Positions 24,968 to 60,450 of a stretch of 64,000 bases of DNA are shown here, one piece after another. Position 1 is the stretch's first letter. Every line of letters starts with the position of its first letter. Below the pieces are notes generated by a model. It was not told the origin of the DNA. It did no database searches and was given only the letters and a program-made list of their open reading frames with translations. The translations under genes and the position numbers were made by a program. Origin of the DNA: Inonotus obliquus (Eukaryota; Basidiomycota; Agaricomycetes; Hymenochaetales; Hymenochaetaceae); contig JAJHTX010000002.1 of the NCBI GenBank assembly GCA_032164295.1, forward strand, positions 4,092,001-4,156,000, in the 5' to 3' direction.

Positions 24968-26282
24968 TTAATACTGTTGGTTTTCGTAAGGAGCGACTAG
25001 TGGTGGTTGTACTTGTCCGTGAATTTTGAGCATCGACGGGTCATGTTCGTATGGCGGTGCAGGGATAGATGTAGGCCATTGAGCTTGAGCCCACGCGTAT
25101 GTGAGCATGGCGAATTCGTTATATGGCGTTTGGCAGACATGGCACATAGGTAGGGCAGGTAGGTTCAGGCTATATGCGTCGTACGGGACATATATGAATA
25201 AAGGCAATACGGACATGTACGAGCGGTAATGGCATACCTTGGATTGGACTGCGGGATATGGAGAGGAAGATGTAGCCCGGCACCATTCTGTGGTTGAACG
25301 GGCTGTTGTCCTTGGGTCACATAGAATGGCTCATACTGACCCAAGTCAGCAGAACTCGGACTGCCCTGTCCCTGAGCCTGGCTCTGCGCCTGTGCCCACT
25401 CCTGATACGCTGGCGTATCCGCATACATCCCGTGTTCACTGGGGGGACTTTGAAATACCGCAGGATACGCGACGGGTGACTTGCTTGCACCTGTATAGCT
25501 GGGACTAGTGGAGCGGGAAGAAAATGCGGCATCATCGAGCTGTCAAACCAAATAGTTAGTCCAAAGTTAGAGGCCACGGGGCGAAAAAATTCATTATCGC
25601 ACCTCGAGCGGCGAGAGACTCCCACTCTCCACCATATTTTGTTTTCGTATCGTCCATGAGATATGCGGCGGACACTCCGTACGTCCCTGGCTCTTGCATC
25701 GTTCGCACAGGTTCGGCATGCCCGGAATCAGTTTGCACTATACAGCGTAAATGAGATTTTAGCTCAACGCCACCAAAACATGGGGGAAAAAAGATGCCAC
25801 ACCTTGCGTTTACTGCCTGAACACTTCCCGCAAGGCTTTCGATTCCTGTCGATGCTCGATCTCTTCCCGCTAGCTCGAGAGGAGCTGGGCCTTGTGGTCG
25901 AGTCTGCAGACAAAGAACGAGTGGCATTTGATTGACCGCCCTTTGGGGAGCCAGAGCTAACCATGCTCTGCGGTGAAGTGGCGCGACGCGCCACGTGTGG
26001 TAGTGCCTTTACACTCAAGCCTTGATCTAGGCTTGGGTTCGGACTTGGAAGAGCGCTGATGGATGCGCCAGCACCGGATGTCGTGTGCAGCCAATTTTGA
26101 TCTATGGGTGTGGTAGATTGACCATTGTAGAATTCCAAGGCGGAGGCGGGAGAGGAGTGAGGTATGGGTTGTAGGGGAGAGAGCGAGAGCGGATCCGAGA
26201 GGGAGTGGGAGCGCCCGTGAGAGTGGACAGAGGCGGAGGGGGAACGGCGGGCTGTGCAAGAACTGGGATGTAAGGCGTGCAT
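24968..26282 (-). CDS. Zn2-Cys6 zinc-cluster protein 1
   Basis: Four exons (26282-25803, 25737-25603, 25539-25238, 25169-24968) sum to 372 residues with closed phases. The N-terminal 145 residues are Ser/Pro-rich and probably disordered. A fungal zinc cluster follows: C151-C154-C161-C171-C174-C182 (CGKCSGSKRKC, a 9-residue loop, CERC, 7 residues, CPPH). The intron falls exactly before Cys161. The C-terminus is Gln/Pro/Ala-rich (WAQAQSQAQGQG) and has a further CHVC pair. Zn2-Cys6 domains bind DNA, usually CGG half-sites, so a nuclear transcription regulator is likely. No fungal MHR regulatory domain is visible. An upstream exon beyond 26282 is possible. Targets are unknown. Confidence 0.82.
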
Positions 26283-29200
26283 GATGATGATGGTCGTTGT
26301 GAGAAAGACTCAGAATGGAGCGACGGTCGTCGTCTCCAAGGGAGGGGAGACTAAAAATGACGGACGCAAAAGGGAGAGACGGATAACCATCCTCCGCTGG
26401 TTCGTGCATTATAAGTATGAAACATGGCAGTGGTCAATAAGTTGGGCCACCCAACAAAATGCTGTCCGTGGTCCATCTCCGGCGTGCCCGCTACAGTAGG
26501 CTTCCTTCCTGGCAAGCTCTCATTGATCGGCACCTACAACTCGATATGAAAACAGTTTAGTTCTGTAGATCCGAGAAACAAGCCCTGAATGGGCCCGAAG
26601 TACGTGTAGTGTGTATGTGTGTAAAATTCAATTTCGCTCGATAGATCTCGGCACATCTCCTAGGCTAGGAAAAGGTCAACATAAACCAAATCATTACGAG
26701 AAATAATGACGAAAAGGCCGCGTTATGTCCCCAAAAGGTGCTCCTAAACTGGACGCATCAGTCGGGCTCGTCGGATCCAAATCAAGGCGAGATTTGAAGG
26801 GAGAAGGGCTTTGACCTGTCGAAGAAAGACGCGCATTGAACTCATTGCGCAGCACAGAAGCTCAGGTCTGTGCGGCTATTCGTGATTTCAACCATCCTGA
26901 GGCTCTCAAGGTCAGTCTTAAACCGATGATGCTCGGTGTTCCCGGTCAACTGCCAACAAAAGGATATCTTAAAGAAGAGCGATTGGGCACTGCCCATGCC
27001 TCCGCCTCTGGGACACTGTACACCGCCTCGGTGCAATACCAGTACATAAACGGAGAGCGTGATGGGCGGTGCTGACGAAGAAGTGGTATTCTCGGGCAAG
27101 GCGATGCACGCAACATGAGGAGGGGAAACGCGTGATCGTGAAATGTGCGTGACGAATGATGCGTGATCCTGGGAGTGTTCCTCTTTGGACGGAAGTTCCC
27201 TAATTTGGTATTCGAACTTTATTTTTCACACAGCTTTGCATAGCCAAGAGGAAGGTAGACGATGGAGAATAAGGGGTGGTAGACACCTGATATCACTTGG
27301 AAAAGAAGACGCTGAGCCGTGGATGCAGCCCGGCTGTTAGCAATGATGCGAGAGCAATCACCCTGCCTCGAGGTTCACACGTAGCTCGTTCTTGACTTCT
27401 AAGCTGGTAATACTCAATAGGTCGAGTGGATATAATAAGGATCAATAACTTTTCATCCGCGATCGTTTACACTGACGGGATCTCTCCGCATATGAGACGG
27501 AGATGAAAGAAATCTAAAATGAAAGGACAGAAAAATCTACCAGGAACCGTACCCACGTTGAGTATCGCATCTAAGGAGGACTTTGGGGTCAAGACGAATG
27601 CGGGTATCACGACTGATCCCTATCGCTACGGGAACAATACAAGTCCCCAATAGATCGTCAAAAATCCCCGCTACTTTCCCGCCTTCCAGAGTTTCTAAAA
27701 ATAGCACCGGATAAGCGAGATAAAATCGGTAAAAATCAATTCAATATTACACCAGTACGAATGAAAGATTATCGAAATGAAAATCAGGGAAAGGCTTTGA
27801 AAACACGCAACGATCTAATACATATCAGAAATACTTCGAAGAATCCCTGGGTGGATCTATGGAAGATCGAAGGGGAAGAAAATATTCACACTGGGAATCT
27901 CCCGAGATGTCGTGACCAGGGGAGACGAATCTTATTTGCTGATTTCTATGAGGCTGAAGGTGAACAAATGAACATGTAATCTGATCCCCCGACTAATTGA
28001 CTTCAAAAAAGCCCGAGAAAGAAGCGATGCGAAGAGAATATCAATTATAGTACAGTACCACAAACTGAATTGCCACTGTGCGCCGGAGAAATGAAGTGTG
28101 GTGGGATTGGCCGTTGTTTATTTGGTCATTGATCATTGGATTGGAATGCCGATTCACTCGCACCATCACGACCATAACAAAAGGATCCGCGTAGTAATTG
28201 TATCCGCTTCTTCCTACCTTCTCCGAGCCCCTCCCCATATTCGTTCGTTCGAATGAATACAACCTTACATAGGGGTCGAGTGAAACAGGGAAAGATACAC
28301 GGATCCTTGCTTGAACTTTGAATTACATCAAGCTTGGTATTACGTTGGTAGTAAGTACATTCAAGCTTCTCTGAAACGTCAATGACGGTCTTTCTGATTC
28401 TTGAGTGGAAGTATACTCATACTGTGCATACAGAATAAGGATCTTCAGTCACCCGGTTTGGTGTTCCCTTTCCTTTTATTTCTTACTTTCCCCGATTGAG
28501 AAGGACTCGGAATAGGCTTTGAGGCAAATCGGCTGACATGATCCCATATTGAGTATTAACAAAACAAAACAAAGCAAAACAAGTAAAGGTGTCTCAACCC
28601 AGACGAACCCTGATATTGTAGATACGACTATATTCTTCTCTGAAACAGCCTTCTTGATCAGAGGGGGCCGTAAGCAGCCTCTGGCAAAGCTTCTAGTCTT
28701 CTGCGCCCTTGATGTTCTGTACATACTACTTTCTGAAGTTTCTGATGTACCGTACGGTATAGTTTATTTCCAGAAATTAATCGCGACTGATGAGACAGAT
28801 CTTCGAACATCTAAATGTTTCGTTCCTTTTCGAGCCACTCGGAAGCCACAAGAATGTTTTCACACCTCATTGCACCTTCTACAGATGTCAGACGATCTTA
28901 GAAGTGTTACATCTCTTATCTTTCGAAGGCACGAGGCCAGGCAGTTGTGTTGCAACCATGTACTAGTAGTAAGAAGCAGCATCATTCTCAGATTCGAAGA
29001 ACTTCGAGGTTGCGAGGCACATGAACCATCACGTCCATTCAACCATTCAATCAGTTCATTAAATTGATTGTTTGAGATTAGCGCGGGTGGTGTCGAAGTG
29101 GGGGGATGGTTCTGAGGTAAATCGGCTGGTCGAAAAGGTCATGGTTCAACAAAGGAAAGAGAGAATCAGGAGTCGGGAGCCTGCCGTCCTCGCGTGTGCA

Positions 29201-29429
29201 AGACACGCGTATGGATGTGAGGGTTAACGTGTAAAAATGAAACTCGAGGTATCATCTCACCTTCTCCTTAGTCTTTACGCTTCGTTGACAGTTTAGCCGG
29301 TACCGCTATTCGTCAGAGAATTTATTTTGACACGACTAAATAATAAAACAGATAGAACGAACAGATCAAACAAGTCAACAAGCATGAGAAAAAAGAAAGC
29401 CACACAGTGACATGATTAGAGGAATGTAA
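26283..29429. other. Gene-poor intergenic region
   Basis: About 3.1 kb. It includes ORFs at 26351-26533 (minus), 26836-27075 (plus), 27761-27979 (plus) and 28549-29067 (plus). None shows a motif or supported splicing. The left end is the upstream region of zinc-cluster gene 1. Confidence 0.35.
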
Positions 29430-31793
29430 TTATGACTTGATCAACCAAGGTTTATTCGCCAACGTCCACGCATCAAGCGTCTTCCAGAAATTCGCGACAA
29501 CGGATTTGTCAACATGTCTCCGGTGCGGATCGATCTGCGAAGAGACGTAACACAAGGTGTGGATCATAGCCGCAAGAAGAGTGAGAAGTAAGAGCGCGGT
29601 TTCACGGGTCAAGATTATCCATTATCCATTTTCAAATAGGATAGAAGATGGTTGTTCCCGCGAGTTTCGACCCGTTGTAGTCGCGTCGCATCGAAATACG
29701 TCGAGTTACAGACGTAGAAATGCGGTGATAAGTGTCAAGTACCGAATTTCATACGTCGTGCGGGCGGAATTCGTAATTTTATTCGATATTGTTTTTGCCG
29801 CCATATAAATGTTTCGTTTTGTTTCGTTCAGACAATCGGTAGATTCGGTTCGTTGGCGGTAAACGGCAGTGAAACCGGAATTCCGTAAGAACACGGTGCA
29901 CACACATTTTAGTCGCGTGGTTTAGGATGAGGGTCGAGGAGGTGAGTAGAATGACGGTTATTAGAAAGGATGCAATTAGCCGCGATGTACCAAGGAGAAG
30001 AAGTAGAGGGATGGAACTTGCCTTGAGTTCTGATACGTTCCAATTCGTAATTTTATGATTAGGAGGATCATTTGCCCAACTAACATAGAATCCCTTCACT
30101 ATTCACGTCGAACCACCGTATCAACAATAAAAAAGGGGGGAAATCAGATCCAAACCGAAAAACATAAACAAAACGTAACGCACCGTGATGAAAAAGAGTC
30201 ATCGGCTCCGTCCACTTGTACGGTTTAAACTGCCACGCTTGGCCCGTCGTCAACACACAAACCACCCTATCCCATGCATCACTGCCAAACTTGGCCAACG
30301 CATCCACCCCATCGACAACGTAATACCGAGATTGCGTGCGTCGTTCTTGGCCGGAAGGATCAATGTGAGTATGTGTACGGTAAATGGGAATGACATCATC
30401 TGGACGTGTATTCCCTTCAGCGGTGGCTCGTGAGCGAGCTTCCGCGGGGTCTTCGAACCTGAATGAATGGGAGACGTTTGTAAGCGTCAATAAAAATTTA
30501 ATTGGATAATTGGCGATATTTCAATTAAGGAAGGGCGGAAGACGGGAAAATGGAGAGAAAAGATGCGCGGGAAGATGTAAGCGCGAAATGATGAGGTTGA
30601 TGTATCAAGGCTGTGTTGTATTGAAGTACTCACGTTGCATCCTGCAAGAACTTGCGGACGTTGTACATCGTGATGAGGGAGGTTGGAGATGACGATATCA
30701 TAATGATCGGAAGCATGTTCTCTGTAGTGCCAACACGAGCACGAGCAATCAGAATTGAACAGTGCAATGCGATGAATCACGGTGAATATGTTCCGATATT
30801 CCATTAGCATCATTTCGTTGGAGAAGAAAGAAGGAAACGCACTAGCTTTTCGAGCTTGGAGTTTCGGATCTGTTCGAAGAAGTCCAGTCAGTTCCACAGC
30901 CACATGAACCGGGAGAGAGAGAAACGAGCACGAACCGACTTTAGTTGCAACGGTTGAAGAAGGAACAGCTCCGTTTTTGGACGCTTCCTTAAGCTTCTTG
31001 ATTCGGTCGGCAAACATCAATCGGACATTGTTGAAGTCCTGAAACGGGACCGCGTTCTCAGCTCCGTAGTTCTCCCGTTTGTAAGGTCGAGTAGCACTCA
31101 CGTTCGGCTTCGTTCCTCGTAGCACACTCGTCCGATCAACCAACTCAATCTCATTCGCTTTAATCTTCTTAACAACGTCTACATCCGCGGGGTCTGCTGC
31201 AAGACGTCTTTTTGACGGTGAGGTCGTGGACGCTGAGCCCTGTGCACCACCCGCTTTTGGCAAGGTGATACTCTGAGAGGGGGGTGTACCGGGTGGGGTG
31301 TGCGAGTCCGCTGAGCAGCCACGAATACATCTTGGTCAGCCTACCGAAAGAAAACAAAGCAAGGAAAAAACGTACACTCTAAAGGAACCACACCCTTATA
31401 CGTCTGTGTTTTCCCATCCAACCACTCTGCTAACCCTTTCCTATCCGTATTACTCACAAACGCTCCGAGGAGCTTACACTCCCTAACACGCAACATATAC
31501 TCCCCGACACTCTCATTTCTCAACAACCACGCTAACAACACTGCATCTAGCCTGAAAAACGCATTCGGTTCTGTCGATGGGTTGGAGGTTGAAGTGGATT
31601 TGTCGGGTTTACTGATTCGGGTGGGGGTGTCTTTTGGAAATGATACAATTGTTGAAGAGGATGGAGGATGAAAGACGATGGCTGTTGCGTCTGCGATAGA
31701 TTGGCATGGCCCTGAGTCTTTTGAGTATGTTATCGAGCCTTTTGTGCGAATAGCGTCGCGGAGTACGTTGAGCGGGTCTGAAGTTGAGCTCAT
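29430..31793 (-). CDS. CDC73: Paf1 complex subunit Cdc73/parafibromin
   Basis: Eight exons (31793-31376, 31310-31102, 31038-30936, 30869-30843, 30721-30634, 30458-30184, 30098-30022, 29534-29430) sum to 433 residues. The N-terminal part has the Cdc73 start (DPLNVLRDAIRTKGSITY) and the conserved VDVVKKIKANEIELVDR helix with LRGTKPN. The C-terminal Ras-like domain (about 254-433) has PIIMISSSPTSLITMYNV, RYYVVDGVDALAKFG, WDRVVCVLTTGQAWQFKPYK and DKSVVANFWKTLDAW. Cdc73 joins RNA polymerase II in the Paf1 complex for elongation and histone modification. Two oddities: exon 4 is a 27-nt micro-exon, and the last intron (487 nt) has a GC donor (AAG|GCAAGT), needed to keep the ELK-ID junction conserved in the family. 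Confidence 0.95.
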
Positions 31794-32205
31794 GGTGGTG
31801 CAAGTCAATGAGTAGCGTCGAAAACGCGCGTTGCAATTCACAAGACCAGACCACAGTGGTTCCGTGACTCTTGAGAGATGCAAGAAAAATTATGTCGTAA
31901 TGGCACAGGCTGTAATGGCCCACCCTAGGGAATGTGAGTTGGTTACTTCCAACGGCTGACAGCCTCTGTGCGCTGGGTTCGACTCGCCCTCTCCCGAAAA
32001 CTTGGACTCCATTTCTGCCCGACGCAGCGGAGGCTGTGTCACTTATATAAGGCATGGATTAAAGTTTGTTGATGACAGGCCAGGGAAGAAATTCTGCAAC
32101 CTGCTCAACCGTCCGAGTTAGTCGTACAGTGAGATCGGGGCTTGTTGTCTGCATATTCGCGCGAGGTTGCGTGCCACTCACAAACCTTTTTATTATTACA
32201 AGTAT
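31794..32205. other. CDC73 upstream region
   Basis: A 412-bp spacer between two minus-strand genes. It must contain the CDC73 promoter and the 3' end of the inositol kinase transcript. No further gene is seen. Confidence 0.4.
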
Positions 32206-33543
32206 TTACTTTTCTTCCAACTCTCCAATACGTCCTTCGAATAGTCTAATAACTGTATCAATACCCTTCAAAACACCTTCGTCTGCTCCTTCCCCAGGAG
32301 TCAATATCGTATGAGCGAAATCAATCAACCGCACAGAATATGCGGGCGCTACTTCTTCCTCACTTTCCATATCGCTATCATAGCCCATCTCATCTTCGTT
32401 CTCCTTTGCAGATTCAACTCCAGCAGAGTTCGTCGGCTCACTCTCATTCGCAGCCTTCCTTGCATTCGCATCGGAAGTGTCAAGTGCCGTCCTCACCGCG
32501 TTCCAATCCGCTTCGTACACGATCAACAAACTCCCACCGACCATGCGTAGTTCTGTTCCAGCCATTGCATTTCGTATTGCGCGGATATCGTTGAGTAGGC
32601 CGTGCATGATCGGGAGAAGGATGGGTTTGGGGAGACCTTGGCCTTGTGGTGTGGTACTGTCGGGTGGGGAGGAGGAGAGAGGGAAGAAGCGACGGATCCC
32701 GTCTGGTAAGTCGGATAGTTTGATAGATTTTCCGTAGGATTTGGGAGTTATGATTTGTTCGTTTTTCGTATGGTCATATACCTATAACTCAAACATGAGT
32801 ATATGCGTATAATAGAAGAGAAGAAGAGAGATGGTGTACCTGAAACCCAGTTAACCTAATACCAGTCTCAAGAGATGTGGTATTCCTTGCTGTCGCGAGC
32901 ATACGTTCTTTCTTTTCTGGGGTAGCAGTTTCGTCGTAGAGGACTGTACCGAGTTTGACGTCCAAGATGTTGGGTTTCGTGAAGAGAGAAGAGACGTTCT
33001 CAAGGACTATGGACTGTGCAAGAGGCGAATAGAGACGGTAAGTACGGACCAGATAAAAAAGGGGAAAGCTTTGTGCTTATCTTTCTGTTCACATTCGACC
33101 TCTGGAATATGTTCAATTCCGCCTTGTTCAATACCAGTAGCCCCCTCACCCGTAACCCTCCCCTCCAACCTCAACGTTCCATAAAACCTAGGCACCCACT
33201 CACTCAATTTCCCAACTCTCTCATCCTCCACAGCAAGCAGCTCATAGAAAGCTTTCTCACCAGGTAAACAACTCTTAACAATCAACAAGTTATCTTCAGA
33301 TTGCAAGACGCCTGGATGACCGCCAACTTGGGAATCGAGAGTACGTGTACGTATTGCGTGAAAAGCGGATTCTCCTGCTGTTATGGCTGAGATGGCTGCG
33401 TTTGAGAGTTTACGGACTGGTTTTGAGAGGGAAGTGGGTAAAGGAGAGGGGAGTGGGGATGGGGAAGGAGAAGGCGTGATGCCGTGAGGTGTAGACGCGA
33501 GACCTAGGGAGAGTGGTGTTGATTTGGGCTTTGAGTCGGACAT
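32206..33543 (-). CDS. Inositol polyphosphate multikinase (IPK/Arg82 family)
   Basis: Three exons (33543-33046, 33013-32840, 32781-32206), all phase 0, give 415 residues. The family signature PxxxDxKxG is present as KPNILDVKLGTVLYDE (about residues 179-194), spanning the substrate and ATP site. The downstream GGSLLIVYE and RLIDFAHT segments match the SLL and IDF (metal-binding) motifs. The N-terminus is a Pro/Ser-rich repeat (SPSPSPLPSPLP), and an acidic insert lies between the SLL and IDF motifs. Enzymes of this family phosphorylate IP3/IP4 toward IP5 and feed inositol pyrophosphate and PHO/nutrient signalling. Specificity between multikinase and IP6 kinase is not settled by eye; size and the ILDVKLG form suggest multikinase. 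It is divergent from the OPA3-like gene. Confidence 0.88.
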
Positions 33544-33767
33544 TGGATGTGGTGAAGAGTGAAGATGAGATGAATGGCTGTGTAGATAGATGGTAGATGG
33601 ATGCCGAGAAGAAACGCGTTCTCTCACGTTCTTCCGAACCGGTGACTTTCACATAAAAATAGCCATAAATTCTCCCAATAAAAATGAGCCGACGGGCGCC
33701 CGCCAGTCACAGTCCCGGTTCTGGTCCTACGCTTAGTTCGAGTGCGTTTAGAGCCGGTCCTCCTGCT
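33544..33767. promoter_or_regulatory. Compact divergent promoter
   Basis: 224 bp separate the start codons of the inositol kinase (minus) and the OPA3-like gene (plus). An in-frame ATG at 33684 could extend the OPA3-like protein by 28 residues, which would leave only 140 bp. Confidence 0.4.
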
Positions 33768-34724: not shown

Positions 34725-34994
34725 TAATGATATCTCACGATATAATACATAATTCTCCAAGTAATCTTAGAACTTACGCTCTTATCCCAGTGTAAGGCAC
34801 TTCGTTGGATTCTTTTGGACATTATTAGGCATCGGGATTGAAACAAGCATAGGGCACCTTTTCATTTGGATTCTACATTCCAAGCATGAGTGGATAGATG
34901 TATCATACATGTATTTGCTCCCGAGTTCTTGTTTAACCACACCTTCCCTGGCTCCCTTACACTACGAAAGCCTAAAGGTGATATCATCAGCAAA

Positions 34995-35934: not shown

Positions 35935-36671
35935 TTTCTTCGACTCAAGCTAGGTTGATCGGAAAGGAATTGATAGAAAGTCTTAAACGACCAACAGGGC
36001 CGTTCCAGCTTGTTATATACGCCACAACTTCTCCCTATCCAGCAGCGCCGAGCACGATCGTACGGTACGTATCCATCCGGCCCGCAAAACGGAGGTACAT
36101 GGGTAAAGGGGGGTGGATTTCTAAGGAATTTCAGGGTGTACGGCGTTGGACGGAAAACCTGTGATCAAGGTATGATATGCAGATTCGAGACAATACAGTA
36201 GACGTATCGCGAAATTGAAAGCAGATCGGAAACAGTTCACGGATCCGGGAGGCTGTCGCGACGAAAGACACTGAGAGTGGAAATAAGGTCAGGCAAGAGT
36301 ATTGAATATTGTAGAATTCCCAATCATGTCTACAAAGTCTCCTGGGTGAAAGAGCGGAGGACAAGCCCAGAGCGATAAGTAACAGAGAATCCGAGTCGGA
36401 AAAGTCGTCCGGGAACTTAGTCACGATAGAGATGAAATTTTCGAGCGTCTTCATAGCAAGGACGTTCGGCAAGAGGTGAGAGTGAGACGGCGGCCTCAAT
36501 GTTATGGTAGGTACTGTAGCTGAGCCTGAGTTGAGTTGGAAGGACAGTACCTCCTGCTTAGTCAGACTTACCATATACGCATACTCGCCATTTCCAAAAA
36601 ATTTGAGGACATCGCCCAATGCCCAAGCTTTCAAGTTGAAGCACGTTCCCTCTGCCTTTCACCTCCTTCCT
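35935..36671. promoter_or_regulatory. Divergent upstream region, SDR and SSZ1
   Basis: A 737-bp spacer between outward-facing genes. A 167-codon minus-strand ORF (36131-36634) overlaps it, but has no recognisable motif and is not called. Confidence 0.35.
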
Positions 36672-46783: not shown

Positions 46784-47515
46784 CTAGTTGGGCTTGAGGA
46801 CGCCTTGGTGTTGAGTCGACGGAATGTATAATAGCTCCGACGTCTACTCAGTTGGTTTCGTTAGCTTTTCGGCTCGGCAGTCAACCGGAGAATGCTTACG
46901 TTGGTCTTTTTCTTCTTCCTAGAAATGTGTGGAGGACAGGGGATCCCATTCGTCTCGCAACGTTCGCAGGTGCCCGGATTTTCACGTACGGGCGTACACT
47001 ATGATGAATTTAGTATTGTGTCGAGAACGACATCAAGCTACCCATGGGAAGGTCCGAGACTCACTTTCTTATGATCATGCTGGCAATGGCCGCATGGGCT
47101 GCAGTTCTTTCGCTTTTTTGACCGCTTTTTTGACCGCTTTTTTGACCCCTCCTCACTCATGTTGAGTCCACCCTGTTCACCAGTCACGGACGGGGTGGAA
47201 GCGTCTTCGCTTCCCTCTCGGTCCTCAGCAGAGGTAGTACAGGCAATGTCAATTACATGGGGAAGTACTTGTGAATTGATGGTTGTTGCAGCCTCTCTAG
47301 TCACCTCTTTGTCGTTCCCGTCAGAGGCAAGTTGCTGAAAATCGTGGTAGTCGTCGCCTACGAACATCGAAAATGCGTGTATGTCGGAGAAAGTCTCCTG
47401 GTTGCCCAGGAGTGCAGTTGCTAGAGCATCTGGGTTAGCGAGACACGTATACGCGTTGTCGTAGAAGTAACGACACACCAGTTACTTCGTCGACCTGATG
47501 GAGGGTACGATCCAT
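46784..47515 (-). CDS. Zn2-Cys6 zinc-cluster protein 2
   Basis: Four exons (47515-47479, 47420-47065, 46998-46900, 46843-46784) give 183 residues in a closed frame. The zinc cluster is C122-C125-C132-C142-C145-C152: CGHCQHDHKKC, a 9-residue loop, CERC, 6 residues, CPPHIS. As in zinc-cluster proteins 1 and 3, an intron sits exactly before the third Cys. The cluster lies in the C-terminal third, after an acidic Ser/Thr-rich half (DIHAFSMFVGDDYHDFQQL) and a basic KKRSKKRSKKRK repeat that may be a nuclear signal. Only about 30 residues follow the cluster, so there is no room for an MHR regulatory domain. The last exon rests on a GTAAGC donor, a CTAAC branch site and a TAG acceptor. A small DNA-binding regulator is likely; the target is unknown. 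Confidence 0.75.
47111..47146 (-). repeat. Three 12-bp tandem copies coding for KKRS
   Basis: Three perfect copies of CGCTTTTTTGAC on the plus strand encode the Lys-Lys-Arg-Ser basic repeat just before zinc cluster 2. Confidence 0.9.
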
Positions 47516-49384: not shown

Positions 49385-51680
49385 TTAGCTCGCAACAGGA
49401 ATCCCATTCTGGAGGGAGAGTTTTTCCAGTTCCTCGTGTATAGAGTTCTCCGCCTCGATCTTCTTGATCTGTGTATCTTCAAGGCGCTCTCCCCTTTCCT
49501 TCCGCTCTTTCAGCTCATCAATAGCCTTCAACTGATGAAAGCAAAAGTAAGTGCTATCCTCGTGAATACGAAACATTAATTGCGAACCTTCTTTTTCAGA
49601 TTGCGCATTTTCTTAGAGACCGCATCAAGTCCGCTTCCATCCGCGCCAGGCGCTAAAGAGGTCTTATCCATCTCTTCGGTGACCGCCGTAGCTACAGCCT
49701 GTCTAAGAGGCTCCGTACTTTCGGGGCCTACGACAGAAGCGGCTGAGCCCCCAGCCTCCCTTTCTGGCTTTTTATCGCCCTTGTTCTTCTTCGATCGGCC
49801 CTGCTTCTTCCCGCCGCCATCTTTGTTTGGAGTTGGTGAGTTGGGTGCCGCACCCGGAACGTAACGGCCCCTCCCTCGTCCCGAACTATGTCCACCGTAA
49901 CCGTTCGCACCTGGAGCCGGGCTACGATTATATGGGCGATTTGGCGTGTTCGCGCCGCTGTTGGGTTCACTGTCGCCTCGCTGATATACGGGGGATGCGT
50001 CCGTGCCTCGTGCTCCCGGTGGACGATACGCCCCCACAGGCTTAGAGGCCGCCGGTTTCGCCCCGGCAGTGAATAATGCAACGCTCGGGTTTGGTGCAGG
50101 TGCGGATGGAACGGCCTGTGGGAAGGCACCCACCGCATCCACAGGAATGGGCCGCCACGATGCCTGGTACAGCTCATCAACAAGCTGAACGTGCATCAAC
50201 GGCCCACTGCAGTGCCAAATCTTGATGCAGTTGTCAACGCGTAATCGCGGGGATAAGGTTGCGGTAAGGATGAAACGACCGCATGGAGACCATTCAAAGA
50301 GCGTTGTATTGGGTGCATCAATGGTAGTAATCTTCTGAAGAGAACGTCGGTCGTATACAATGATCTTGCCAGACATGTTTCCGAAACCAGCGAGCGCTAA
50401 CAATCGACCTTGTGGATTGAAGGAGATAAAGTTTTGCGGAGCAGTCCCAAAGTCGTGGATGATTCTGACGTGACTGTCAAAGAGAACAGCCCTGGTTGGC
50501 GTGACTAGAAAAAATACGGTCTTAGCTCAAACATCATTACACTGTACATTTTCACGCTTACATCCGCAGACAACCCCAAACTCCTTCGAGTTCGGGCTCC
50601 ATGCAAAGTCATGGATAGGTCCTTCCTTCGGTGCGGCCACATGACAATCAAAATTACCTGCTGAGCTCAGCAGGTACAACCTTGTTTCTCCATAGTAGCT
50701 CTTGTTGGTCTGGTCGACATCTGTCCGTACGAGCGCGAGGACCTGAGTCCCGATCGTATTCCATTTAAACTGCGTATGCTCAGCCCGAAAGGTTGATTTT
50801 GAGCACGTTGGAGGGCTGGAGAGATTTAGAAGACTGTAAACCCTTAAGTTGGCGGGCTGACCCTTAGTCCCCTTGTGAGCGCAATTCGAATAGCTCACAA
50901 GTGACCACCTACATTTTTTTCAGAAACGAATGCTGCCACATGTGGATTTAAGCCAGGGCTCAGGGAGATAGTTGACAAACCCTCGACTCTAAGTTTGTCC
51001 ACAACACCTTTCGACCACTCTGCGGGATGGAAAACCTGCATCTCATGCCCTACGAGACGTACGGCGTGCGATTCGGATATCGTAAACTGAAGCTCCCAGG
51101 TATTCTGGGACTTTTGGGAGAACGAGGCCAGTTCCTCCCCACTCGAGACGGAAAAGACACGCAAGTTCTTGTGCTGCGCATCATTCTCAAGCTTCACTGG
51201 AAGAACTACGGAGTCAGGCCTCGTATCCTTCACAAAACTCTTCACAAACGTACCTGGGCGCTCCCATGTTGAGATATAGGTTCCGCGCGGCGAAAAGCTG
51301 ATCTCCGTGACGTTGGGTAAGGGCAATTCGCGCAGTAACTCAGCACTCTCGGCGTAATGAACGCGTACGCTAGTCAGAGTAACAAAACGAAGCTGAGAAC
51401 AGGATGCGAGCTATTGTGGGAGAAGAATCGCCTACCAGTCGGGTAGAACAAAGGCGAATAATCGACCGTCGGGACTGTAGATGTACTTACGGGTAGCGAA
51501 CTGCGTCTCGAAACCCTGCACTGATTCATAATTGGGAGATCCACCAACAAGACCGAGACTCTTCTGGGACCGAACTGTAGCGGGTAAAAACAGTGAAAAA
51601 TGCATCAGTACTTCAGCTGCTCTACAAACGCTTGCATCACGAGACGTACATGCGTACTGTTGCGACATGGGAGATGTCAT
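49385..51680 (-). CDS. Eukaryotic translation initiation factor 2A (eIF2A)
   Basis: Six exons (51680-51650, 51574-51436, 51369-50913, 50871-50562, 50504-49588, 49531-49385) give 666 residues. The start at 51680 was chosen because the first splice yields QQYAFRSQKSLGLVGGSPN, the family N-terminus. The first 400 or so residues form the WD-repeat beta-propeller: YIYSPDGRLFAFVLP, TEISFSPRGTYISTWERP, HDFAWSPNSKEFGVV, IIHDFGTAPQNFISFNPQGRLLALAGFGNMSG (given here in short pieces of one continuous segment set), LFEWSPCGRFILTATL. Then comes a Pro/Gly/Arg-rich linker (RGRGRY, KKQGRSKKNKGDKK) and a C-terminal coiled coil (KAIDELKERKERGERLED). eIF2A can deliver initiator tRNA to the 40S subunit independently of eIF2. 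All phases close. Confidence 0.94.
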
Positions 51681-52492
51681 GGTGAGCAACAACAAGATCA
51701 ATAAAGATGCAGACCAAGGCTAGGCTTAGAAGCAAGCTAATGCTTCAGTTGGGGACGTGCAGGGTATTGGCGAGAGGGGAGCGGTGGGACGAGGAGGCGG
51801 GCGGTGAGCGTGTAGATGAGAGTGTGCCAGGGATCATGCCCAAATTTGCAAATTTGAAAAAATGTGCCGACCGATGTTTAGGGCCAGTCAGAAAGACATC
51901 AATCACGTGGTCGATCTTTGGCTAGTCCTACAAAAATCATAGCTGTTCAAAATACATGGAATAGATCTCTGCGAAATGTAATTACTTAGCACTGTGGTTG
52001 AAAATCTATAGTCTTTTTGCTTCAATTGACACAAATTTTCCTCTAGTACGCTACCTTGTTGGTCTTAAAGGGTCATAATAATTGATCCTATTTCAAGATT
52101 AGAAAACACAGTTTAATCAAGAAATTATCACTGGGAGAGCGGTTCGAACTTGAAGATCCGAGAAGATTATGTAATATACTTCCTAATTGGGTCCACTGTA
52201 CTTCCGATTGGCGGGGCGATTGTCGGTCTTCCACCGACACCCACGTCGACAACGACGAGATAACGATGGTTTGTCCTCATCATCCATCACAACGCATATA
52301 GACACTCATAAATCCTGTTAGATTGACGACCTCTGACGGACGAGGGGCGACGCGTTGCACTTGCCGCTGAGGTCATCTGCAACCTTTTGTGCAAGTGGAG
52401 AGGCGCGGCACGGAAGCAGGGCAAGCACTCGTCATCCGCGATAACTCAGCACTCTCGTCGCTGCGCAGTACATATCCACTCTTGTAGATATA
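51681..52492. promoter_or_regulatory. Divergent upstream region, eIF2A and kinase
   Basis: An 812-bp spacer between outward-facing genes. The middle (about 51940-52200) is AT-rich. No gene or defined operator is seen. Confidence 0.35.
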
Positions 52493-54964
52493 ATGGTTTC
52501 TGTCGACCTCCGCCGTACTATACACACTATACCCGACGACTCTGACCCAGCGATGTCACGCTGGTCTCGCCTCCCTAGTCCCATTCCCCATCAGGTCGAG
52601 CCCGCCGAGATGCTAGCGGAAAGTGCCTCGACAAGTTCCGCAAAATCATCTCTCAAGTCGTTATCCATATTCACGGTCAACGTCGCGGAAGGACTTCTCC
52701 CATCGCCGCTGCCGTCGCCTCGGGAACTACCAAGCAATACCAGCAAGACTGCCGCCTTCTTTGGCTCTCCTTTCTCAGCGACCGGTCCGCCCACCCCCGC
52801 ACCCCCACCACCCCCTTCACGTAGTGACACGATTACTGCCGCTCCACAATCTAAAGAGAATATGTCCGGGCGCTCCGCCACTGCTGACTTCTTTGCTTCT
52901 GGTGCGTTGGGGACACGTCCCACGCCCCCGCCCAGCATAAAGTCCTCGGCTAGTTCACGTGAATCGTCCCCGCCACGTCTTCCGCCTCTCTCCCGGTTTT
53001 TCCCTTCACGTTATACTGCAAGTCCCACCCTCGAGGAACAGAATGAAGAGCTCTTACACCACCGTAGGAAAGGTACTGATTGGGAAACGAGCTTCAAACG
53101 GGAGTTCATTAGTCTCTCGAAAAAGGTGCCCCAGCAACCGCCTTCGCCACCTCTTCTGATGCAACCGATTTCCCCACCTGTGGAGCACCACCAACTACCT
53201 GATCTGAGAGCTTCTAATGCAGGTGCTCACACCTTACCAATTCGACGCGAGACTCATTTAGTTGGGGCCTCACGCGGTAGCGGTGACTCAGGTTTTGAGG
53301 AGGCAGTTTCCGGACCAGGATCGTCGAACCTTTCTGCAGGCATGCGCCTTGAATCAGGTTCCGCGAACCTTAAGCTTGTCTATCCTCTTGGAGAAGGAGC
53401 CTTTAGTGCCGTCTGGCTTGCAACAGATGAGACAGGCAGTCTTGCCCCTCTGGTTGATCCTGATCCACGGATTAGGCCCGAGACGCTCAGAAGGAAAAGC
53501 TCTAGCTGGGCCAAGAAGGGTCGCGATAGACGAATGCAAGGAATCAAGCCTTTGACGACAGTTGGTGTGGGCATGACCTGGAAGGGCGAATCTCAGGACG
53601 CGGATAGAAGCGTGGTGCTGCATGAGCAAGACGGGGAGGGCGCCACCGCTGCCCCCGAAACTTCTGCTCAAGTGACCAAGCCGAACGGAAGACTTGTCGC
53701 TGTAAAAATGATTGATCGAGCTCTATGCGCAGCAGACGACAGGACACGCATTAGCTTTGTGCGTGAAGTCGAGGTTCTAAGAGTAAGTCTTTGAAGTAGA
53801 AATCTTTTTCCCAACTAGTAACCCGTTTTGAAATCTCATTAGCATATTGCACATCCATCAATTATTGCGTACTTGCATTCCTTTGATACCTCCACTCATC
53901 ACTGCCTCGTGCTTGAGTATATCGGCGGCGGGGAACTCTTCGAACTTGTTAACTCTGACAAGCAATACGCGTGCGTGACAGAACCGGCTGTCCGTCGAAT
54001 GTGGGGTGAATTGTGTCTTGCTGTTGGATGGATGCACGGTGTTGGCCTCGTCCATCGTGATATCAAGCTTGAAAGTAAGTCGACTCTCCCATCTTCCGCG
54101 GAGACCGCCAACTGAACTTCAAATACCATTTTAGATATCTTGCTCACACAGAATATTTTTACTGTGGATGATCCGCTTCCTCCTTCCAATATGCCGCTCA
54201 TCAAGCTTACGGACTTCGGCCTAAGCCGCTTCATTGATCCATCATCACCATTACTCTCAACACGATGTGGCTCTGAATCATATGCTGCTCCAGAGCTCGT
54301 GCTTGGCGCAAGTCGTGTGCGATGTATCGCATCGGATGGTGATAGCCCCGAATCAAGCGAGGCAAAAGCCAAGGGTTATTACGATGGCCGCCAGACGGAT
54401 GCGTGGGCATGCGGTGTTGTTTTATACGCGCTTGCTACACGTCAATTGCCCTTTGACTCACCGCCACCCTTGCTAATGTCGACAAGCACAGCACCCTCAC
54501 GTGCGGGAAGCGTACGTAGCACGCGCAGTAATCGCAGTGTGGGATCTGGATCTATACGCTTACGCCCCAATCGCAGACGAGATATGCTTATGCGAATCGC
54601 GCAGTGCGAGTATTGGTGGCCGGACGAAGTCACTGAACCTGATGCCGAAGATGAAGAGGTTGACGCACAAGTCGAGGCAGCTCGAAGGCTTGCTTCCCCA
54701 GAATTGAAATGCATCGTTCGAAGGCTACTGGAGCGTATCCCGGACCGACGGGCACGGATGGTTGACCTCTGGACTGAACCGTGGATGCGTGGTGAAGGCG
54801 CGCCTGCTCCACCCCTCTGCGCCTCGTCTTCCAGATCCGCGGACAAGGTGAATGGTGAACTTGGTGACGACGAGGGAGAAGACGAATGGCACTCGCATGA
54901 TGGTGTTCTGCTTGATGGAGAGCACATCGATTCTGTCGCAACCCAGGAATTGGATCCCTTATAG
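52493..54964 (+). CDS. Ser/Thr protein kinase with a split N-lobe
   Basis: Three exons (52493-53782, 53843-54074, 54135-54964) give 783 residues. The first 290 residues are Ser/Pro-rich and disordered, with repeated PSPLPSP and PPP tracts. The kinase domain has the glycine loop LGEGAFSAV (about 300), the VAIK lysine in RLVAVKMIDRAL (about 402), VHRDIKLEN (about 500), TDFGLS (about 533) and AAPEL (about 558), all intact. About 100 residues are inserted between the glycine loop and the lysine (with RRMQGIKPL), and a basic Ser/Arg-rich insert follows LPFDSPPP. The C-terminal tail is acidic. The fold looks CAMK-like, and the RRMQGIKP insert suggests a conserved fungal family whose name I cannot give. 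Substrates are unknown. Confidence 0.9.
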
Positions 54965-55780
54965 AGCTAGACGACCCCGCTATCTCCCAACCTTTGTGCA
55001 ACTCGACAATGCATGACATTCCTGTCTAGGACGCTACCTCTGCCATCCCATAGAAGAAATCGTGTCTCCCGTAATATGCTTCTCAAATTCTCGGCATTCT
55101 TTCTCTGGGCTCGTTGCTTCTCCCGGTCTTCAATTGACTCTATTTCGAAGGTTTCTCCTCTCCATCACTCAGGTAACAATAGATTTTGTATATACAAGCG
55201 CAAGCCATTCTGTCTGTTTTTCCCGTGTCTGTCTGTTTTTATAATTTCTTCCTAACTAATATTCAACCAACTTCCTCGCCAACAACTTTTCGTTTTCCCT
55301 TCTTGTGTCCATTCTTTCTTTGCGATGCTTATATGTTGTTCCGTGTAGGTCTATGTCGCTAGGTAAACGTGTGCGATTAATCTTGCATTTTTTGACCCTG
55401 CTCGCACGTTCGTATGTTTTATTCATTATTAGATGTTGTATACATTACAAATCCTGCATGTTTCAGTCGATTAATTTTCTTTCTCTCTTCTCCGCTGTTG
55501 ACCAATGAAATGACACACGTGTCTAGAAGCAACCCTAATAGATCTGTGGCTTTTACCGAAATGTGGTAGACTCATTGCCTATTCTGATTTGTCACGCGAA
55601 GTCTGAAGTTTGTTGTTTGAATTGTGGCTGGCTTCGAGAAGGTGCCGGGTGGGAATCAATTAGAGGATTATCGATCTGATTATCGATACAAAAAATACCG
55701 CAGGTAATTGAATGTCACAATCGAGGGAGCAGCGGCGGGTCACAGCCCCCTTCTAAAAACAGACAATCCTGTGTGGATGA
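54965..55780. other. Convergent 3' region, kinase and ATG15
   Basis: An 816-bp spacer, pyrimidine-rich on the plus strand after the kinase stop. It is presumably 3' UTRs. No gene is supported. Confidence 0.4.
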
Positions 55781-57408
55781 TCATAACTGTTCTATAAGCA
55801 TCTGCTTGAAATCTCCGAATTCCCAATTAAAGCAATCCTATACCAAAAGTTAAGTCAGAACAGTAGGGCACGAATTCATTACGTACCACGCAATCTTTTT
55901 CGTAACCTGGTTCCGGGACAGCACGTCCTGAGTAGTCTTCACTGGGTGGCTCCCAGTCCTCTGACAATACGCCGTCGATGACCCGTGCGATAGAATGCGT
56001 GCGTATGTCGACTGCCCAGCCTTTCTTTGAGACCGTATCATATTTGATGACTTGACCAAGGTGACATCTTAAATAAGGCGAGTTCATCTGGATTGGTACT
56101 TTAACAGCCAGGAGATGTGATGTCGAAACTTACTTTGATTCCATGGCGTACCCAGCAATGGCACAGGAGGATGTCACGCCGTTGCACACACCCATTGCGA
56201 TTGGATCAGCAGTGTGATAGATGTGGGTAATATGAAGGGTGGAAGGCTGGATAGAAAAAAGTGCCAGTTGGTATCTGAATAGTCAAACACGCGTAGAACG
56301 TGAAAAGACCCACTGGTGAAGGAAGGTGTAGTCTTGCAGCAGCCATTTTCTCTCCTGGAGCCTCAAATGCAATAACAGGAACACCGAAGGTGGCTCCCGT
56401 TAACGAGGCGAGTGAGCCGCCGAGGGAATGTCCTAGCATGTCCAGAATATGTTGGTAAATAGTCTGTCGGATAGTCTATCTGGGTTGAGACTGACCAGTG
56501 ACCCAGATATCGGCATCGGGGTACAGATATGTGACGTTATGGTAAAGATTCTGAAGAGAGGGGTCATCGACTACTATAGGAAGAGACTCGACAGAAACTT
56601 ACGACTGCAACATTATAGAATATGCTTTCATCCGTTAAAGCTGTCTGGAGACAGTTTTGATCACACTTGTAGCCTCCAGAGTAACAATCGCAGACAGGAG
56701 ACCACGTGGGACCGACACGAGCGCAGCAGCACGAGAACAGGAGGTTGTCGTTTAGCTTGTCCTTCCTCACAGTGGGACCTCCGCCTCCGACAATCCAACC
56801 GCCCGAAGTACCCTTAATGGAGAGTACGACAGTGGAATTATCTTCAGACACGAATATATGACCTCTGAATCCATCAGCATCTGGCTCCCAACCGAACGGA
56901 TAGCTCTGGGATGACTAACATCAGTACTTACTAAGGAAATAGAGGAACTAGTACTCACGTCGTTTCCCCAATCCGGGCCAAGTGCATACCATTCTTTGTC
57001 CTTGCGTTCGTAATAAGCATTATTGGTCATTTTTGCAAGCGTCAGAAGAGTGTTCCGGTTCTCCACATCCGGAGCAGGGATGTTCGATTGTATCCAGAGG
57101 TCCACGTCCGTTTGTCCAGTCAAGAAAGGAGAAACTCGCGCCTTCGAAAAGGCATCGAAAGACTTCGGACGATGAGTTTGTATTCTTCTTGAGTTGATTA
57201 CATGCTGCTCAAAGGAAACGAGCGACTGCGGAACGTCAGCAAAGAGTACGCGTGAGTCGTTTGCGATTGCATGTTCATGTCTTAGCGTGAAGGTGAGCGA
57301 CGGTGGGTTCTTGCTCAGAATTGCCTGGTCGCTGCGTACATATGGCCTTGATACAAACAGCAAAGGAGCCAAGAGGAGTTGTAGAGCACTCGGAAGGGTC
57401 GCGAACAT
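55781..57408 (-). CDS. ATG15: Autophagic lipase Atg15
   Basis: Seven exons (57408-56959, 56905-56603, 56550-56496, 56432-56314, 56246-56134, 56067-55887, 55837-55781) give 425 residues. An N-terminal hydrophobic signal anchor ([13 protein letters not shown]) precedes the lipase class 3 domain: [20 protein letters not shown], the Cys-rich [18 protein letters not shown], the nucleophile elbow GHSLGGS with Ser272, [15 protein letters not shown] with the catalytic Asp, and [11 protein letters not shown]. Atg15 is a vacuolar phospholipase that breaks down autophagic bodies after delivery by the multivesicular-body route. The last 57-nt exon ([10 protein letters not shown]) was added because a GTACGT donor precedes an earlier in-frame stop and it restores a [11 protein letters not shown] end. 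GGWIVGGGG is slightly longer than the usual GGWVGGG. Confidence 0.95.
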
Positions 57409-59903
57409 GGTTGTCGAAGGTAAGTCGCAGGACCGCGCCTCGATGTGCTTATTTTGGAGAAAATGAGGCGTCGATCAATCCCACGATTCGATTCTCGTCG
57501 TCGCGTTCGTCTCACGTCCTGACTCCTGACTCCCACGGCGCCATCTGGCTCTGGCAAAGATACAGCGGCAAAAGCGCGGCGTGTGTATGTCTTAATCATT
57601 AGAAAGCTCCCAGTTGCAGATGTAGTGGCCTGACCTTTCCCGAAAACCTTTTAAGGGATCCGTGGTCTATAGGAGAGATATCAAGCTGGCATTACGATAG
57701 CTTGGTGCTGGGGATCAATACTTTACGTCGTCACGAGCGTTCGTGGATGAGGCTACTATATGATGGTTCTTGGTTTATTTTCCAATTCCGAACGTGCGTT
57801 GGGTCATCTCGACTCTTGACATAGATTATGACTACATTCCATCCGCACTGTTTCCGCCTAGCGAATTGTTGTGGAATGGATCCGCATTTCTCAGATGCCC
57901 AGTCACTTCTGAGTATACTGCGTCCCGCCACAGTGAGGGCACTGTTTTACGACACTACTGCAGGATATTTCGGGAATACATAGTTCTCCGAACAGCCCTC
58001 TTGGCTCCCTTCTATGTTTAATCTACCGGTGGAAAAAACAAGAACTGTGGTGCGGTACAGTATGTGCGATCGAACAGGAGCAAGAGTGAGATGGGTGCGA
58101 CATTCGTGTCGCAAGCTAAAGCGGGAGCCACTCTAATAGGCGCCAGTCGCAACCGCCGCGTCAAGTACAAGGAAGCTCCCTTACATGGAGCACGGACCAA
58201 AGTGAGCTAAATGCGATCTCAGGGGGCAGGGGGAATTTTCTCTTTGACATGCGACCTCGGCTCAGCCGGAAGCTGGAATGTATGCGTAACCCCCCCCCCC
58301 CCAGTACTGTTCGAGCGGATAGGACTCAACGTGTCTGTGAGCATGACTACCTCTAACTTTCAAGAGCTCAGCTATCTCGGTGACACAGGACCTGAATGCC
58401 AAAGCTCCTCAACACGCTGGCATCCAGTTGAGTTAAGGTGAAGGTTTGTATGCCTCAGTGTGAGCAATCACTGTAGTTGCAAGCATAGGAACCGCAGTAA
58501 GATATGTGATCGTTTCTGATGGTAGATGACTATTTACTCTTCTTTTGTGAGTTGCCAACTACAGACTATTTTTGTTGAGGGACGGGAAGAGTACGCGCGA
58601 AGGAGTTGTGGAGATCAAGAAATGATACTCACGCTGATACTCAGGCTGCTCCTCCGCCTACATACATACTTTGAGTGGAAACTTGTATAAAATATTATTA
58701 CAACCTTGGCCTTTTCCAAAGCCGAAGTACTGATTAATTGAGTACAGGACTCATCGGACTGCGCGTTGTGCGTTTAAAAGTCCCGAAAACACACGCCGCG
58801 ACGCGCGGCCACCTTAGTGAAGCAAGAAAATCTACCGAACCGTTACTTTCGGGGCCTCCGAGTTGGTCAAGGGTTGCACTTCGGTGGACCTTACCGGTGG
58901 TTTTCCGATGTCATGCGGGATGCTCAGTACTCTCAGTCGGTTTACCGGAATTCCAGAAAGGTGCCATGACGTCCAGTTATTAAATGTAATGCTGGCTCCG
59001 GTTTTCGCGGCACATTGAGAAGAATAGTAAGGAGCGAGAGTATCCAGTTCTATAGGTTCTCGAATGGTAAGTAGATAATTCGTCTGGCGCATATTGGTTT
59101 ACATTTGTGTTTCTCCAGGGCCGCTCTACCACCGACATTTTGCGCGCTAATCAGACCACCAGATGAGCTTTAATTTCATTGAACGGAATTGTTGCAGATG
59201 CATAAGTACGGGTTACGCGGTAATTCGGGTTCGGCAGAGGAACAGGTACAAAACGTTTTGCGACGTGATGCCGTTGCAGGATGGAAGGTCCTCATTGAAT
59301 TCCGTACCAAATCTTGTTGATCTGCTTGAAACCGGATCACATTTCGCAATCCGACAGGTTCCACAAAGACTAGCAGTAATCCTCATGCCACGACGAAGAA
59401 CAAAGCTCGCGTTTATCATCTGGCGGGTCGTTCGTGGTTCCAAGTTGCCCCAATTGCTCCTTAGGAGGGACAAGAGTGAAACGAGGAGAACTTTCCTGGC
59501 TTCTTCCTTCAGCCACCTGCCTCAATTGATGTCTTATGTTAGAGTGGAAGTCTGATTGGTTCATCATGATCTGTCGTAACCCTTATTTTCATAATGCCAA
59601 AATAATCAAGCTCATTGGCAACGTGAAGTGAAATGCAATGCTACAAGGCCAGTCCTTTGTCCTTTTCCCATCTCTCGTAAGAAGCGCCGCCAATCTAACC
59701 TCGCATTCCGAGTTTAGCAGGATGACAGCGATATGGTTGCCATCTAAACACACGATCCACATATAAATCATGTAGCCAGTCAACTTCATCTCGCTATCCC
59801 TTCCCTTTGCTTCATTTCATTGCCTCTAATCCCCATAGATTCTTCTAACTACTCATATGTGGTTCCCTTCAGTGGGGGCGAGGATAACTCCTTATGCTAT
59901 GGC
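57409..59903. other. Gene-poor intergenic region
   Basis: About 2.5 kb. ORFs at 58738-58983, 58832-59092 and 59163-59555 lack family motifs. A 13-C homopolymer lies at 58290-58302. The left part is the ATG15 upstream region and the right end is upstream of zinc-cluster gene 3. Confidence 0.35.
58290..58302. repeat. Poly-C homopolymer (13 nt)
   Basis: Thirteen consecutive cytosines. The length is likely polymorphic or prone to sequencing error. Confidence 0.8.
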
Positions 59904-60450
59904 ATGGTGGACTCGTTACTTCCGGCATTCTTATTGGACACGAATATACGAACAGCCGAACTCCCCATGTCCGCTACATTTCCATTTCCTGAGGCTCTGG
60001 CAGCTGTTCCACTTCACGGCGCTGGTGAAGCAAGCTGGGTCGGGAGCAATCGGATGGTTGATGAGAATAACTCTCTTGAGAGTAGCAATAGGGTTGATGA
60101 AGGCATGATTCCGAGGCAAACGAAGAATGATAGTCCATGCGGCACCTGTCAAGCACGGAAGAAAAGAGTAAGCACGGACTTCTGATTATGCTGTTATGTT
60201 TCCATGCTACATAGGTTACTATCTAGTGCGTGGTGATCAGGCAAAACCCTGCCCTGTGCATGTTGTGCGCGAAGGGCGGTGAACCTCAATGCCCACCACA
60301 CGTGTCGGGAAAGGCCACAAAGGAAAAGCGCCATATGGGATTTTCCAATGTGCGTGTATAATTTAACTTCTGTAACTATGGTTAGAGATAATAATGCCCA
60401 ACTTTCAGATGCAGAAAGAAAAACAGAACCACGACACAAGTGCAGAATGA
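59904..60450 (+). CDS. Zn2-Cys6 zinc-cluster protein 3
   Basis: Three exons (59904-60167, 60227-60349, 60409-60450) give 142 residues with all junctions in phase 0. The cluster is C79-C82-C89-C99-C102-C110: CGTCQARKKRC, a 9-residue loop, CMLC, 7 residues, CPPHVS. The first intron again falls exactly before the third Cys. The N-terminal 75 residues are Ser/Asn/Glu-rich with no fold I recognise; the tail (KEKRHMGFSN, QKEKQNHDTSAE) is short and charged. The open frame continues upstream to 59820 without an ATG and a CATAG acceptor-like sequence lies near 59840, so an upstream exon is possible. It is probably a small DNA-binding protein lacking a fungal MHR domain. The cysteines are clear; expression is unproven. 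Confidence 0.7.

What the first reader, a model, noticed from the sequence alone, without database searches (positions are those of the whole stretch)
24968..60450. Three small Zn2-Cys6 proteins sharing spacing, a CPPH tail and one intron position
Genes at 24968-26282, 46784-47515 and 59904-60450 each encode Cx2Cx6Cx9Cx2Cx6-7C followed at once by PPH(I/V)S. In all three a phase-0 intron sits exactly before the third cysteine. Outside the cluster they share nothing obvious, and all lack room for or signs of a fungal MHR domain. Ordinary Gal4-type clusters vary in the loop and intron positions. The shared intron and tail point to common descent and dispersal within 35 kb, a candidate lineage-specific family of minimal DNA-binding proteins. 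No single frame spans the motif, so ORF-based annotation would miss all three.
Basis: partly seen in the sequence, partly recalled or inferred. Interest (0 to 1): 0.75.

Follow-up and report, generated by a model that had tools for sequence, protein, structure and literature searches.

The report
Divergent fungal zinc-cluster gene family
Three neighbouring genes in a wood-decay fungus encode related, divergent versions of a common fungal DNA-binding zinc module and belong to a small family of at least seven genes, five of them near one end of one contig; this is a new branch of a well-known kind rather than a new kind.

Summary
The three spliced clusters lie at the stated places, with the stated spacing, the PPH(I/V)S tail and a phase-0 intron directly before Cys3. 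They are the only clusters my one-intron scan finds in the window; 60 shuffles gave none with a PPH tail. I found seven such genes in the genome, three of them by weak hits then read by eye. All seven can be spliced directly before Cys3, and five lie within 192 kb of contig C2. Leave-one-out profiles rank each of the seven above 34 ordinary clusters. Common descent is well supported.

Two claims fail. The intron is not special: 6 of 44 ordinary zinc-cluster loci read have it at exactly this place. What marks the family is CG at Cys1 (6 of 7; 0 of 34 controls) and a CPP tail (5 of 7; 0 of 39). And gene 1 is neither minimal nor missed: relatives of 342-370 aa are annotated, unnamed, in five Hymenochaetaceae. 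Genes 2 and 3 gave no hits.

Most likely these are divergent Gal4-type DNA-binding proteins, nearest to LEU3. DNA binding is inferred, not shown.

The parts
24968..26282 (-). Gene 1, 372-aa model: exons 26282-25803, 25737-25603, 25539-25238, 25169-24968; conserved relatives in Hymenochaetaceae
   Evidence: Splice model; Fomitiporia protein P0003 aligns to this locus in 4 pieces (E 5.5e-20 to 8.2e-8); relatives
25657..25832 (-). Gene 1 zinc cluster plus PPHIS tail, split by phase-0 intron 25802-25738 before Cys3
24968..25169 (-). Gene 1 last exon: conserved C-terminal P-x-CHxC-x-TPY-x7-Y region
   Evidence: Conserved in 5 of 5 NCBI relatives (four of them with gene 1); no Pfam match in gene 1 at that place; one weak PDB profile match (thioredoxin domain protein 3gnj, E 0.34)
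46784..47515 (-). Gene 2, 186-aa model: exons 47515-47479, 47429-47065, 46998-46900, 46843-46784; KKRS repeats just before the cluster (NLS-like)
   Evidence: no hit in the protein search
46921..47094 (-). Gene 2 zinc cluster plus PPHIS tail, intron 47064-46999
59904..60450 (+). Gene 3, 142-aa model: exons 59904-60167, 60227-60349, 60409-60450
   Evidence: no candidate in the protein search
60138..60307 (+). Gene 3 zinc cluster plus PPHVS tail, intron 60168-60226

Best explanation
The three genes are paralogues in a divergent Gal4-type (Zn2Cys6) family, marked by CGxC at Cys1-Cys2 (6 of 7), a proline three residues before Cys4 (7 of 7) and a CPP(H/Y) tail after Cys6 (5 of 7). The genome has at least seven members, five of them in the last 240 kb of contig C2, which suggests old local duplication followed by fast divergence. 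Gene 1 is the conserved full-length member of Hymenochaetaceae: probably disordered serine/proline-rich arms around the cluster and a conserved C-terminal CHxC segment. Mechanism (inferred): six cysteines hold two zinc ions; the basic stretch before Cys3 reads a short DNA half-site, as in LEU3; the PPH(I/V)S segment starts the linker; the arms recruit or repress transcription machinery. Genes 2 and 3 keep the DNA-binding part and the linker start but lack gene 1's C-terminal region. The intron before Cys3 is an old slot also used by some ordinary zinc-cluster genes. Shown: spacing, possible splice position, family grouping, gene 1 conservation. Inferred: expression, actual splicing, zinc and DNA binding, regulatory role.
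For: Cluster and phase-0 junction before Cys3 in all seven (for three, for four). Leave-one-out profiles built without the tail rank each of 7 first of 35 (23.7-40.3 bits against 18.1 at most for a control). CG at Cys1 in 6 of 7 against 0 of 34 controls (lists). CPP tail in 5 of 7 against 0 of 39. Clustering. Profile of 11 clusters matches LEU3 at E 3.4e-4, then CYP1/HAP1 at 0.04-0.07; with the five CPP members alone LEU3 is still first, E 0.013. AlphaFold of P0003 puts its best-scoring island on the cluster (mean pLDDT 79 and 82 in residues 161-180); Foldseek's top row is LEU3, not significant. Relatives. P0006 carries, by its letters, what looks like a read-through of the intron at the same place, a second-species sign of it.
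Against: None of the six full-length proteins scanned (genes 1-3, P0001, P0003, P0005) reaches Pfam's Zn_clus cut-off; for gene 1 Zn_clus is not listed at all, the only row being GRXCR1-2_C (E 0.66), which also scores slightly above Zn_clus in P0005 (18.0 against 17.4 bits) and matches 6 of 11 bare clusters. As bare clusters 2 of the 7 in-genome members pass (23.6 and 22.3 bits), both without the CPP tail, and 5 do not. Three members came in by weak hits (C2:735 kb E 0.09, C2:4309 kb E 0.13; C2:4259 kb E 0.56), and exon 2 of C2:735 kb and of C2:4259 kb finds only itself. Gene 1 exon 2 did not find gene 2. Members were collected mainly by exon-2 similarity, so the exon-2 part of the leave-one-out test is not independent, and 10 of the 44 control loci were left out of it because their clusters were not resolved. 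At C11:943 kb the scan also lists a second possible intron that does not end at Cys3. No relative for genes 2 and 3. The structure model is poor overall (mean pLDDT 45.6). No expression or binding data.
Confidence: 0.7

Rival explanations
1. The clusters are a zinc-binding module that no longer reads DNA: a structural or protein-protein module derived from Zn2Cys6.
For: Most members lie under the Pfam Zn_clus cut-off; GRXCR1-2_C, a cysteine-rich module (recalled), matches 6 of 11 clusters (best E 1e-4) and is the only match listed for full-length gene 1; gene 1 relatives have a second conserved CHxC site; no recognised effector domain.
Against: Basic residues before Cys3 are kept (K or R directly before Cys3 in 11 of 11 clusters); Zn_clus matches 11 of 11; LEU3 is the nearest solved sequence; gene 2 has an NLS-like KKRS repeat.
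Confidence: 0.15
2. No special family: three ordinary zinc-cluster genes that share an ancestral intron by inheritance and a tail by chance.
For: 6 of 44 ordinary loci have the same intron; the C2C6C9C2C6C spacing is also that of LEU3 (alignment).
Against: Leave-one-out 7 of 7 first; CPP tail in 0 of 39 controls; no PPH-tailed cluster in 60 shuffles.
Confidence: 0.08
3. Genes 2 and 3 are decaying relics of once full-length members and make no working protein.
For: No relatives found; short; the member at C2:4309 kb stops two residues after Cys6 and the one at C2:735 kb lacks PP, so the family does lose parts. Codon usage does not separate their exons from stop-free null stretches.
Against: Both keep all six cysteines and the tail, and their models close without internal stops across GT-AG introns. 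Codon usage of the main 5' exon is best of six frames in the proposed frame for both (gene 3, 0.11; gene 2, 0.123, printed as the first of the other frames because I entered that exon one base off), but the null median is 0.08, so this is weak.
Confidence: 0.2

Closest known systems
LEU3 DNA-binding domain (S. cerevisiae; PDB 2er8, 2ere, 2erg)
   Same: Cx2Cx6Cx9Cx2Cx6C spacing, proline three residues before Cys4, basic residues before Cys3; best sequence match in the PDB (E 3.4e-4 with 11 clusters; 0.013 with five)
   Different: No CPP tail and no CGxC start in the aligned stretch; LEU3 is a large yeast regulator (recalled)
Pfam PF00172 Zn_clus, Fungal Zn(2)-Cys(6) binuclear cluster
   Same: Six-cysteine frame; 11 of 11 clusters match at E up to 10
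   Different: 5 of 7 in-genome clusters under the cut-off of 21 bits (gene 1 16.2; 17.9, 13.9, 14.8 and 11.3); CPP tail in 5 of 7 against 0 of 39 ordinary clusters
ACEPAF_5227, ACEPAG_4883, FOMMEDRAFT_145452, M0805_005500, DFH11DRAFT_1868163 (hypothetical or uncharacterized proteins, Hymenochaetaceae)
   Same: Gene 1 relatives: 60-72% identity over the 76-residue cluster region searched, and conserved motifs along the whole length
   Different: None found for genes 2 and 3

Membership tests
Gal4-type Zn2Cys6 cluster | CX2CX6CX5-12CX2CX6-8C spacing (recalled) | tested here: met
   for the three; for the other four (Cys3-Cys4 loop 7-10)
Gal4-type Zn2Cys6 cluster | Proline in the Cys3-Cys4 loop (recalled) | tested here: met
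   Invariant in 11 of 11, three residues before Cys4; aligned with the LEU3 loop
Gal4-type Zn2Cys6 cluster | Basic residues between Cys2 and Cys3 (recalled) | tested here: met
   K or R directly before Cys3 in 11 of 11
Gal4-type Zn2Cys6 cluster | Score over Pfam PF00172 cut-off (a curated threshold, not a biological feature) | tested here: inconclusive
   0 of 6 full-length proteins; as bare clusters 2 of 7 in-genome members
Gal4-type Zn2Cys6 cluster | Two zinc ions bound, DNA half-site recognised | not testable with these tools
   needs protein
Zn2Cys6 with fungal MHR domain | MHR/Fungal_trans domain | tested here: not met
   No such Pfam match at E up to 10 in genes 1-3 or three relatives
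   Possible in 7 of 7, but also in 6 of 44 ordinary loci read, so not diagnostic
   Three window genes. Wider family: CPPHIP at C11:943 kb, CPPY at C2:4259 kb, absent at C2:4310 kb and C2:735 kb

The most novel reading that the evidence does not exclude
Genes 2 and 3 are natural cluster-only competitors of the conserved gene 1: they keep its DNA-reading cluster and linker start but not its C-terminal region, occupy the same sites and damp its targets, and a nest near one contig end keeps making new ones.
Probability: 0.1. Interest if true: 0.55.

Novelty: new member of a known kind. Interest (0 to 1): 0.35.

Why it matters
Counts of fungal transcription factors usually rest on Pfam hits (recalled). 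This family falls mostly under the cut-off, so such counts would miss most of it even where the gene is annotated: the six relatives found carry no Pfam label. A conserved gene 1 with fast-diverging short neighbours is also a tractable case for how short regulator paralogues arise.

Tried and rejected
Intron as a family mark: rejected after reading 44 of the 51 PF00172 matches that one search lists for the genome (7 weaker ones not inspected; the list itself is a lower bound). Six have the intron at 0 nt from Cys3 (L064, L066, L076, L081; L079 with a GC donor and L080, read by eye). About seven more lie within 3 nt (read by eye), and in 17 the intron is 10-27 nt upstream (counted). L081 seems to belong to the same multi-cluster gene as L007 and L039, so the 44 are loci, not 44 genes. 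The exon-by-exon search disfavours clusters split at Cys3, so six is likely low.

Dispersal by DNA-level repeats: the three neighbourhoods share only 13-23 nt matches. Relatives of genes 2 and 3: none (114 candidates, none at E up to 10, no candidate); the search needs shared 5-residue words. Fold search of P0003: no significant match. C-terminal region: one PDB profile match, 3gnj at E 0.34, taken as noise. Codon usage: no real support. Literature: eight answered searches (one search returned nothing), seen as capped listings with abstract starts only; none of the listed titles or abstract starts deals with this family. One paper (PMC2447501) was queried for five terms and gave none. The library lacks most subscription papers.
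Full report
What was checked. The window is C2:4092001-4156000 of a 36.07-Mb, 30-contig assembly. A two-strand scan for Zn2Cys6-like clusters, unspliced or across one GT-AG intron of about 40-130 nt, finds no unspliced and exactly three spliced clusters, those of the finding, each with a phase-0 junction directly before Cys3 and a PPH(I/V)S tail. In 60 first-order Markov shuffles of the window the mean number of spliced clusters is 0.08 (maximum 2), and none carries PPH.

Gene models. Gene 1 (minus, 26282-24968) has four exons and 372 aa; gene 2 (minus, 47515-46784) four exons and 186 aa; gene 3 (plus, 59904-60450) three exons and 142 aa. All close without internal stops over GT-AG introns of 49-68 nt. 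There is no transcript evidence. Pfam lists no MHR domain at E up to 10, and Zn_clus stays under its cut-off of 21 bits (gene 2 14.2, gene 3 10.6, gene 1 not listed).

How many in the genome. Six-frame searches used exon 2 of each gene. Gene 1 exon 2 found itself, C11:943769 (E 6.5e-5), gene 3 (0.02) and two weak places, C2:735404 (0.09) and C2:4309653 (0.13), but not gene 2. Exon 2 of gene 2 and of gene 3 each found the three window genes and C11:943769 and nothing else. The Fomitiporia protein added a weak exon-1 match at C2:4258601 (E 0.56). Reading the four extra loci shows a six-cysteine cluster that can be spliced at phase 0 directly before Cys3 in each (at C11 a second possible intron is also listed). 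Exon 2 of C11:943 kb finds the three window genes and C2:735 kb; that of C2:4309 kb finds gene 1 weakly (0.05); those of C2:735 kb and C2:4259 kb find only themselves. No eighth appeared. Tails of the four: CPPHIP (C11:943 kb), CIGHVP (C2:735 kb), CAA-stop (C2:4309 kb) and CPPYKA (C2:4259 kb). The search scores only the best candidates, so seven is a lower bound. Five of seven lie within 192 kb of C2, between 239 and 47 kb from its end; 0 of 400,000 random placements of seven genes on a line as long as the genome put five within 192.0 kb, and 53 of 400,000 put three within 34.6 kb. The window was picked because three were seen in it, so the second figure is flattered.

Is it a family? Profiles of the cluster from Cys1 to Cys6, tail excluded, were built from six members and scored on the seventh and 34 ordinary clusters of the same genome. 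Each of 7 came first of 35, at 23.7-40.3 bits, with the best control at 18.1. The 34 are those of the 44 loci read whose cluster I could write out; 10 were left out, and two of the 34 (L080, L082) lack a clear Cys6. Members were collected by exon-2 similarity, which favours this result; but G after Cys1 lies in exon 1 and is found in 6 of 7 members and 0 of 34 controls. None of 39 control tails begins with PP (three begin with a single P).

Is the intron special? No. PF00172 gives 51 matches in the genome at E up to 10; I read 44. Six have a phase-0 intron exactly before Cys3 (L064, L066, L076, L081; L079 and L080 by eye), about seven more lie within 3 nt (by eye), and in 17 the intron is 10-27 nt upstream. 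The search handicaps clusters split at Cys3, so the true share may be higher. The intron is thus an old slot, found in every family member read but not its own.

Relatives elsewhere. A protein search with the cluster region of gene 1 returned 6 proteins among 10 candidates: Sanghuangporus sanghuang, S. baumii, Fomitiporia mediterranea, Coniferiporia weirii, Phellopilus nigrolimitatus and one unnamed ENA sequence. All five named species are Hymenochaetaceae. The five NCBI proteins share conserved motifs along their length, with a C-terminal P-x-CHxC-x-TPY region. The ENA protein P0006 reads SKRK-VNSF...LLIMQ-CTPV, which looks like read-through of the same intron, has a CPPYVS tail, and departs from the others after SPLE, where gene 1 has its second intron. 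Gene 2 had 114 word-sharing candidates and no hit at E up to 10; gene 3 had no candidate. In the cluster alignment the six in-genome paralogues are 35-51% identical to gene 1, and the four relatives from other species included there 65-80%, so the duplications look older than the split of those genera, unless genes 2 and 3 simply evolve faster.

What it does. The 11-cluster profile finds LEU3 (E 3.4e-4 and 8.4e-4), CYP1/HAP1 (0.04-0.07) and, weakly, other zinc-cluster proteins and one unrelated enzyme among solved structures; with the five CPP members alone LEU3 remains first at E 0.013 and 0.052, followed only by rows of an unrelated protein at E 2.6 or worse. Against this, the Pfam model GRXCR1-2_C competes with Zn_clus for these clusters. 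AlphaFold of P0003 gives two better-ordered islands, one on the cluster and one on the C-terminal CHxC segment, in an otherwise low-confidence model (mean pLDDT 45.6); Foldseek's top row is LEU3 at E 3.7, not significant. I take the proteins as divergent Gal4-type DNA-binding regulators. Zinc binding, DNA binding, splicing and expression are inferred.

Verdict. A real, small, divergent zinc-cluster family with local concentration, in a lineage where gene 1 is conserved and already annotated without a name. I saw no description of it in the listings (one search was empty); it is ordinary in kind.

Noticed in passing
L007, C3:1627.6-1628.4 kb of the same genome: At least four Zn2Cys6 clusters follow one another within about 0.7 kb (one unspliced at L007:1504, three spliced starting at 1687, 1882 and 2068), apparently in one gene, with a possible fifth upstream; ordinary members carry one cluster (recalled)..
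   Followed up: partly
window 7102-11926: Dicer-like gene on the plus strand (Dicer dimerisation and RNase III domains in the frame 8648-10900; the other frames by eye).
   Followed up: no
window 14635-19424: Two neighbouring F-box-like proteins (E 2.9e-4 and 9.9e-5, both under the Pfam cut-off).
   Followed up: no
window 25169-24968 and relatives P0001-P0005: Conserved C-terminal P-x-CHxC-x-TPY-x7-Y segment of gene 1 without a recognised domain.
   Followed up: partly
C2:4309653 (L043): Family member whose frame stops two residues after Cys6 (CAA-stop) but whose bare cluster scores best of the seven against Pfam Zn_clus (23.6 bits); perhaps a truncated or decaying copy.
   Followed up: partly
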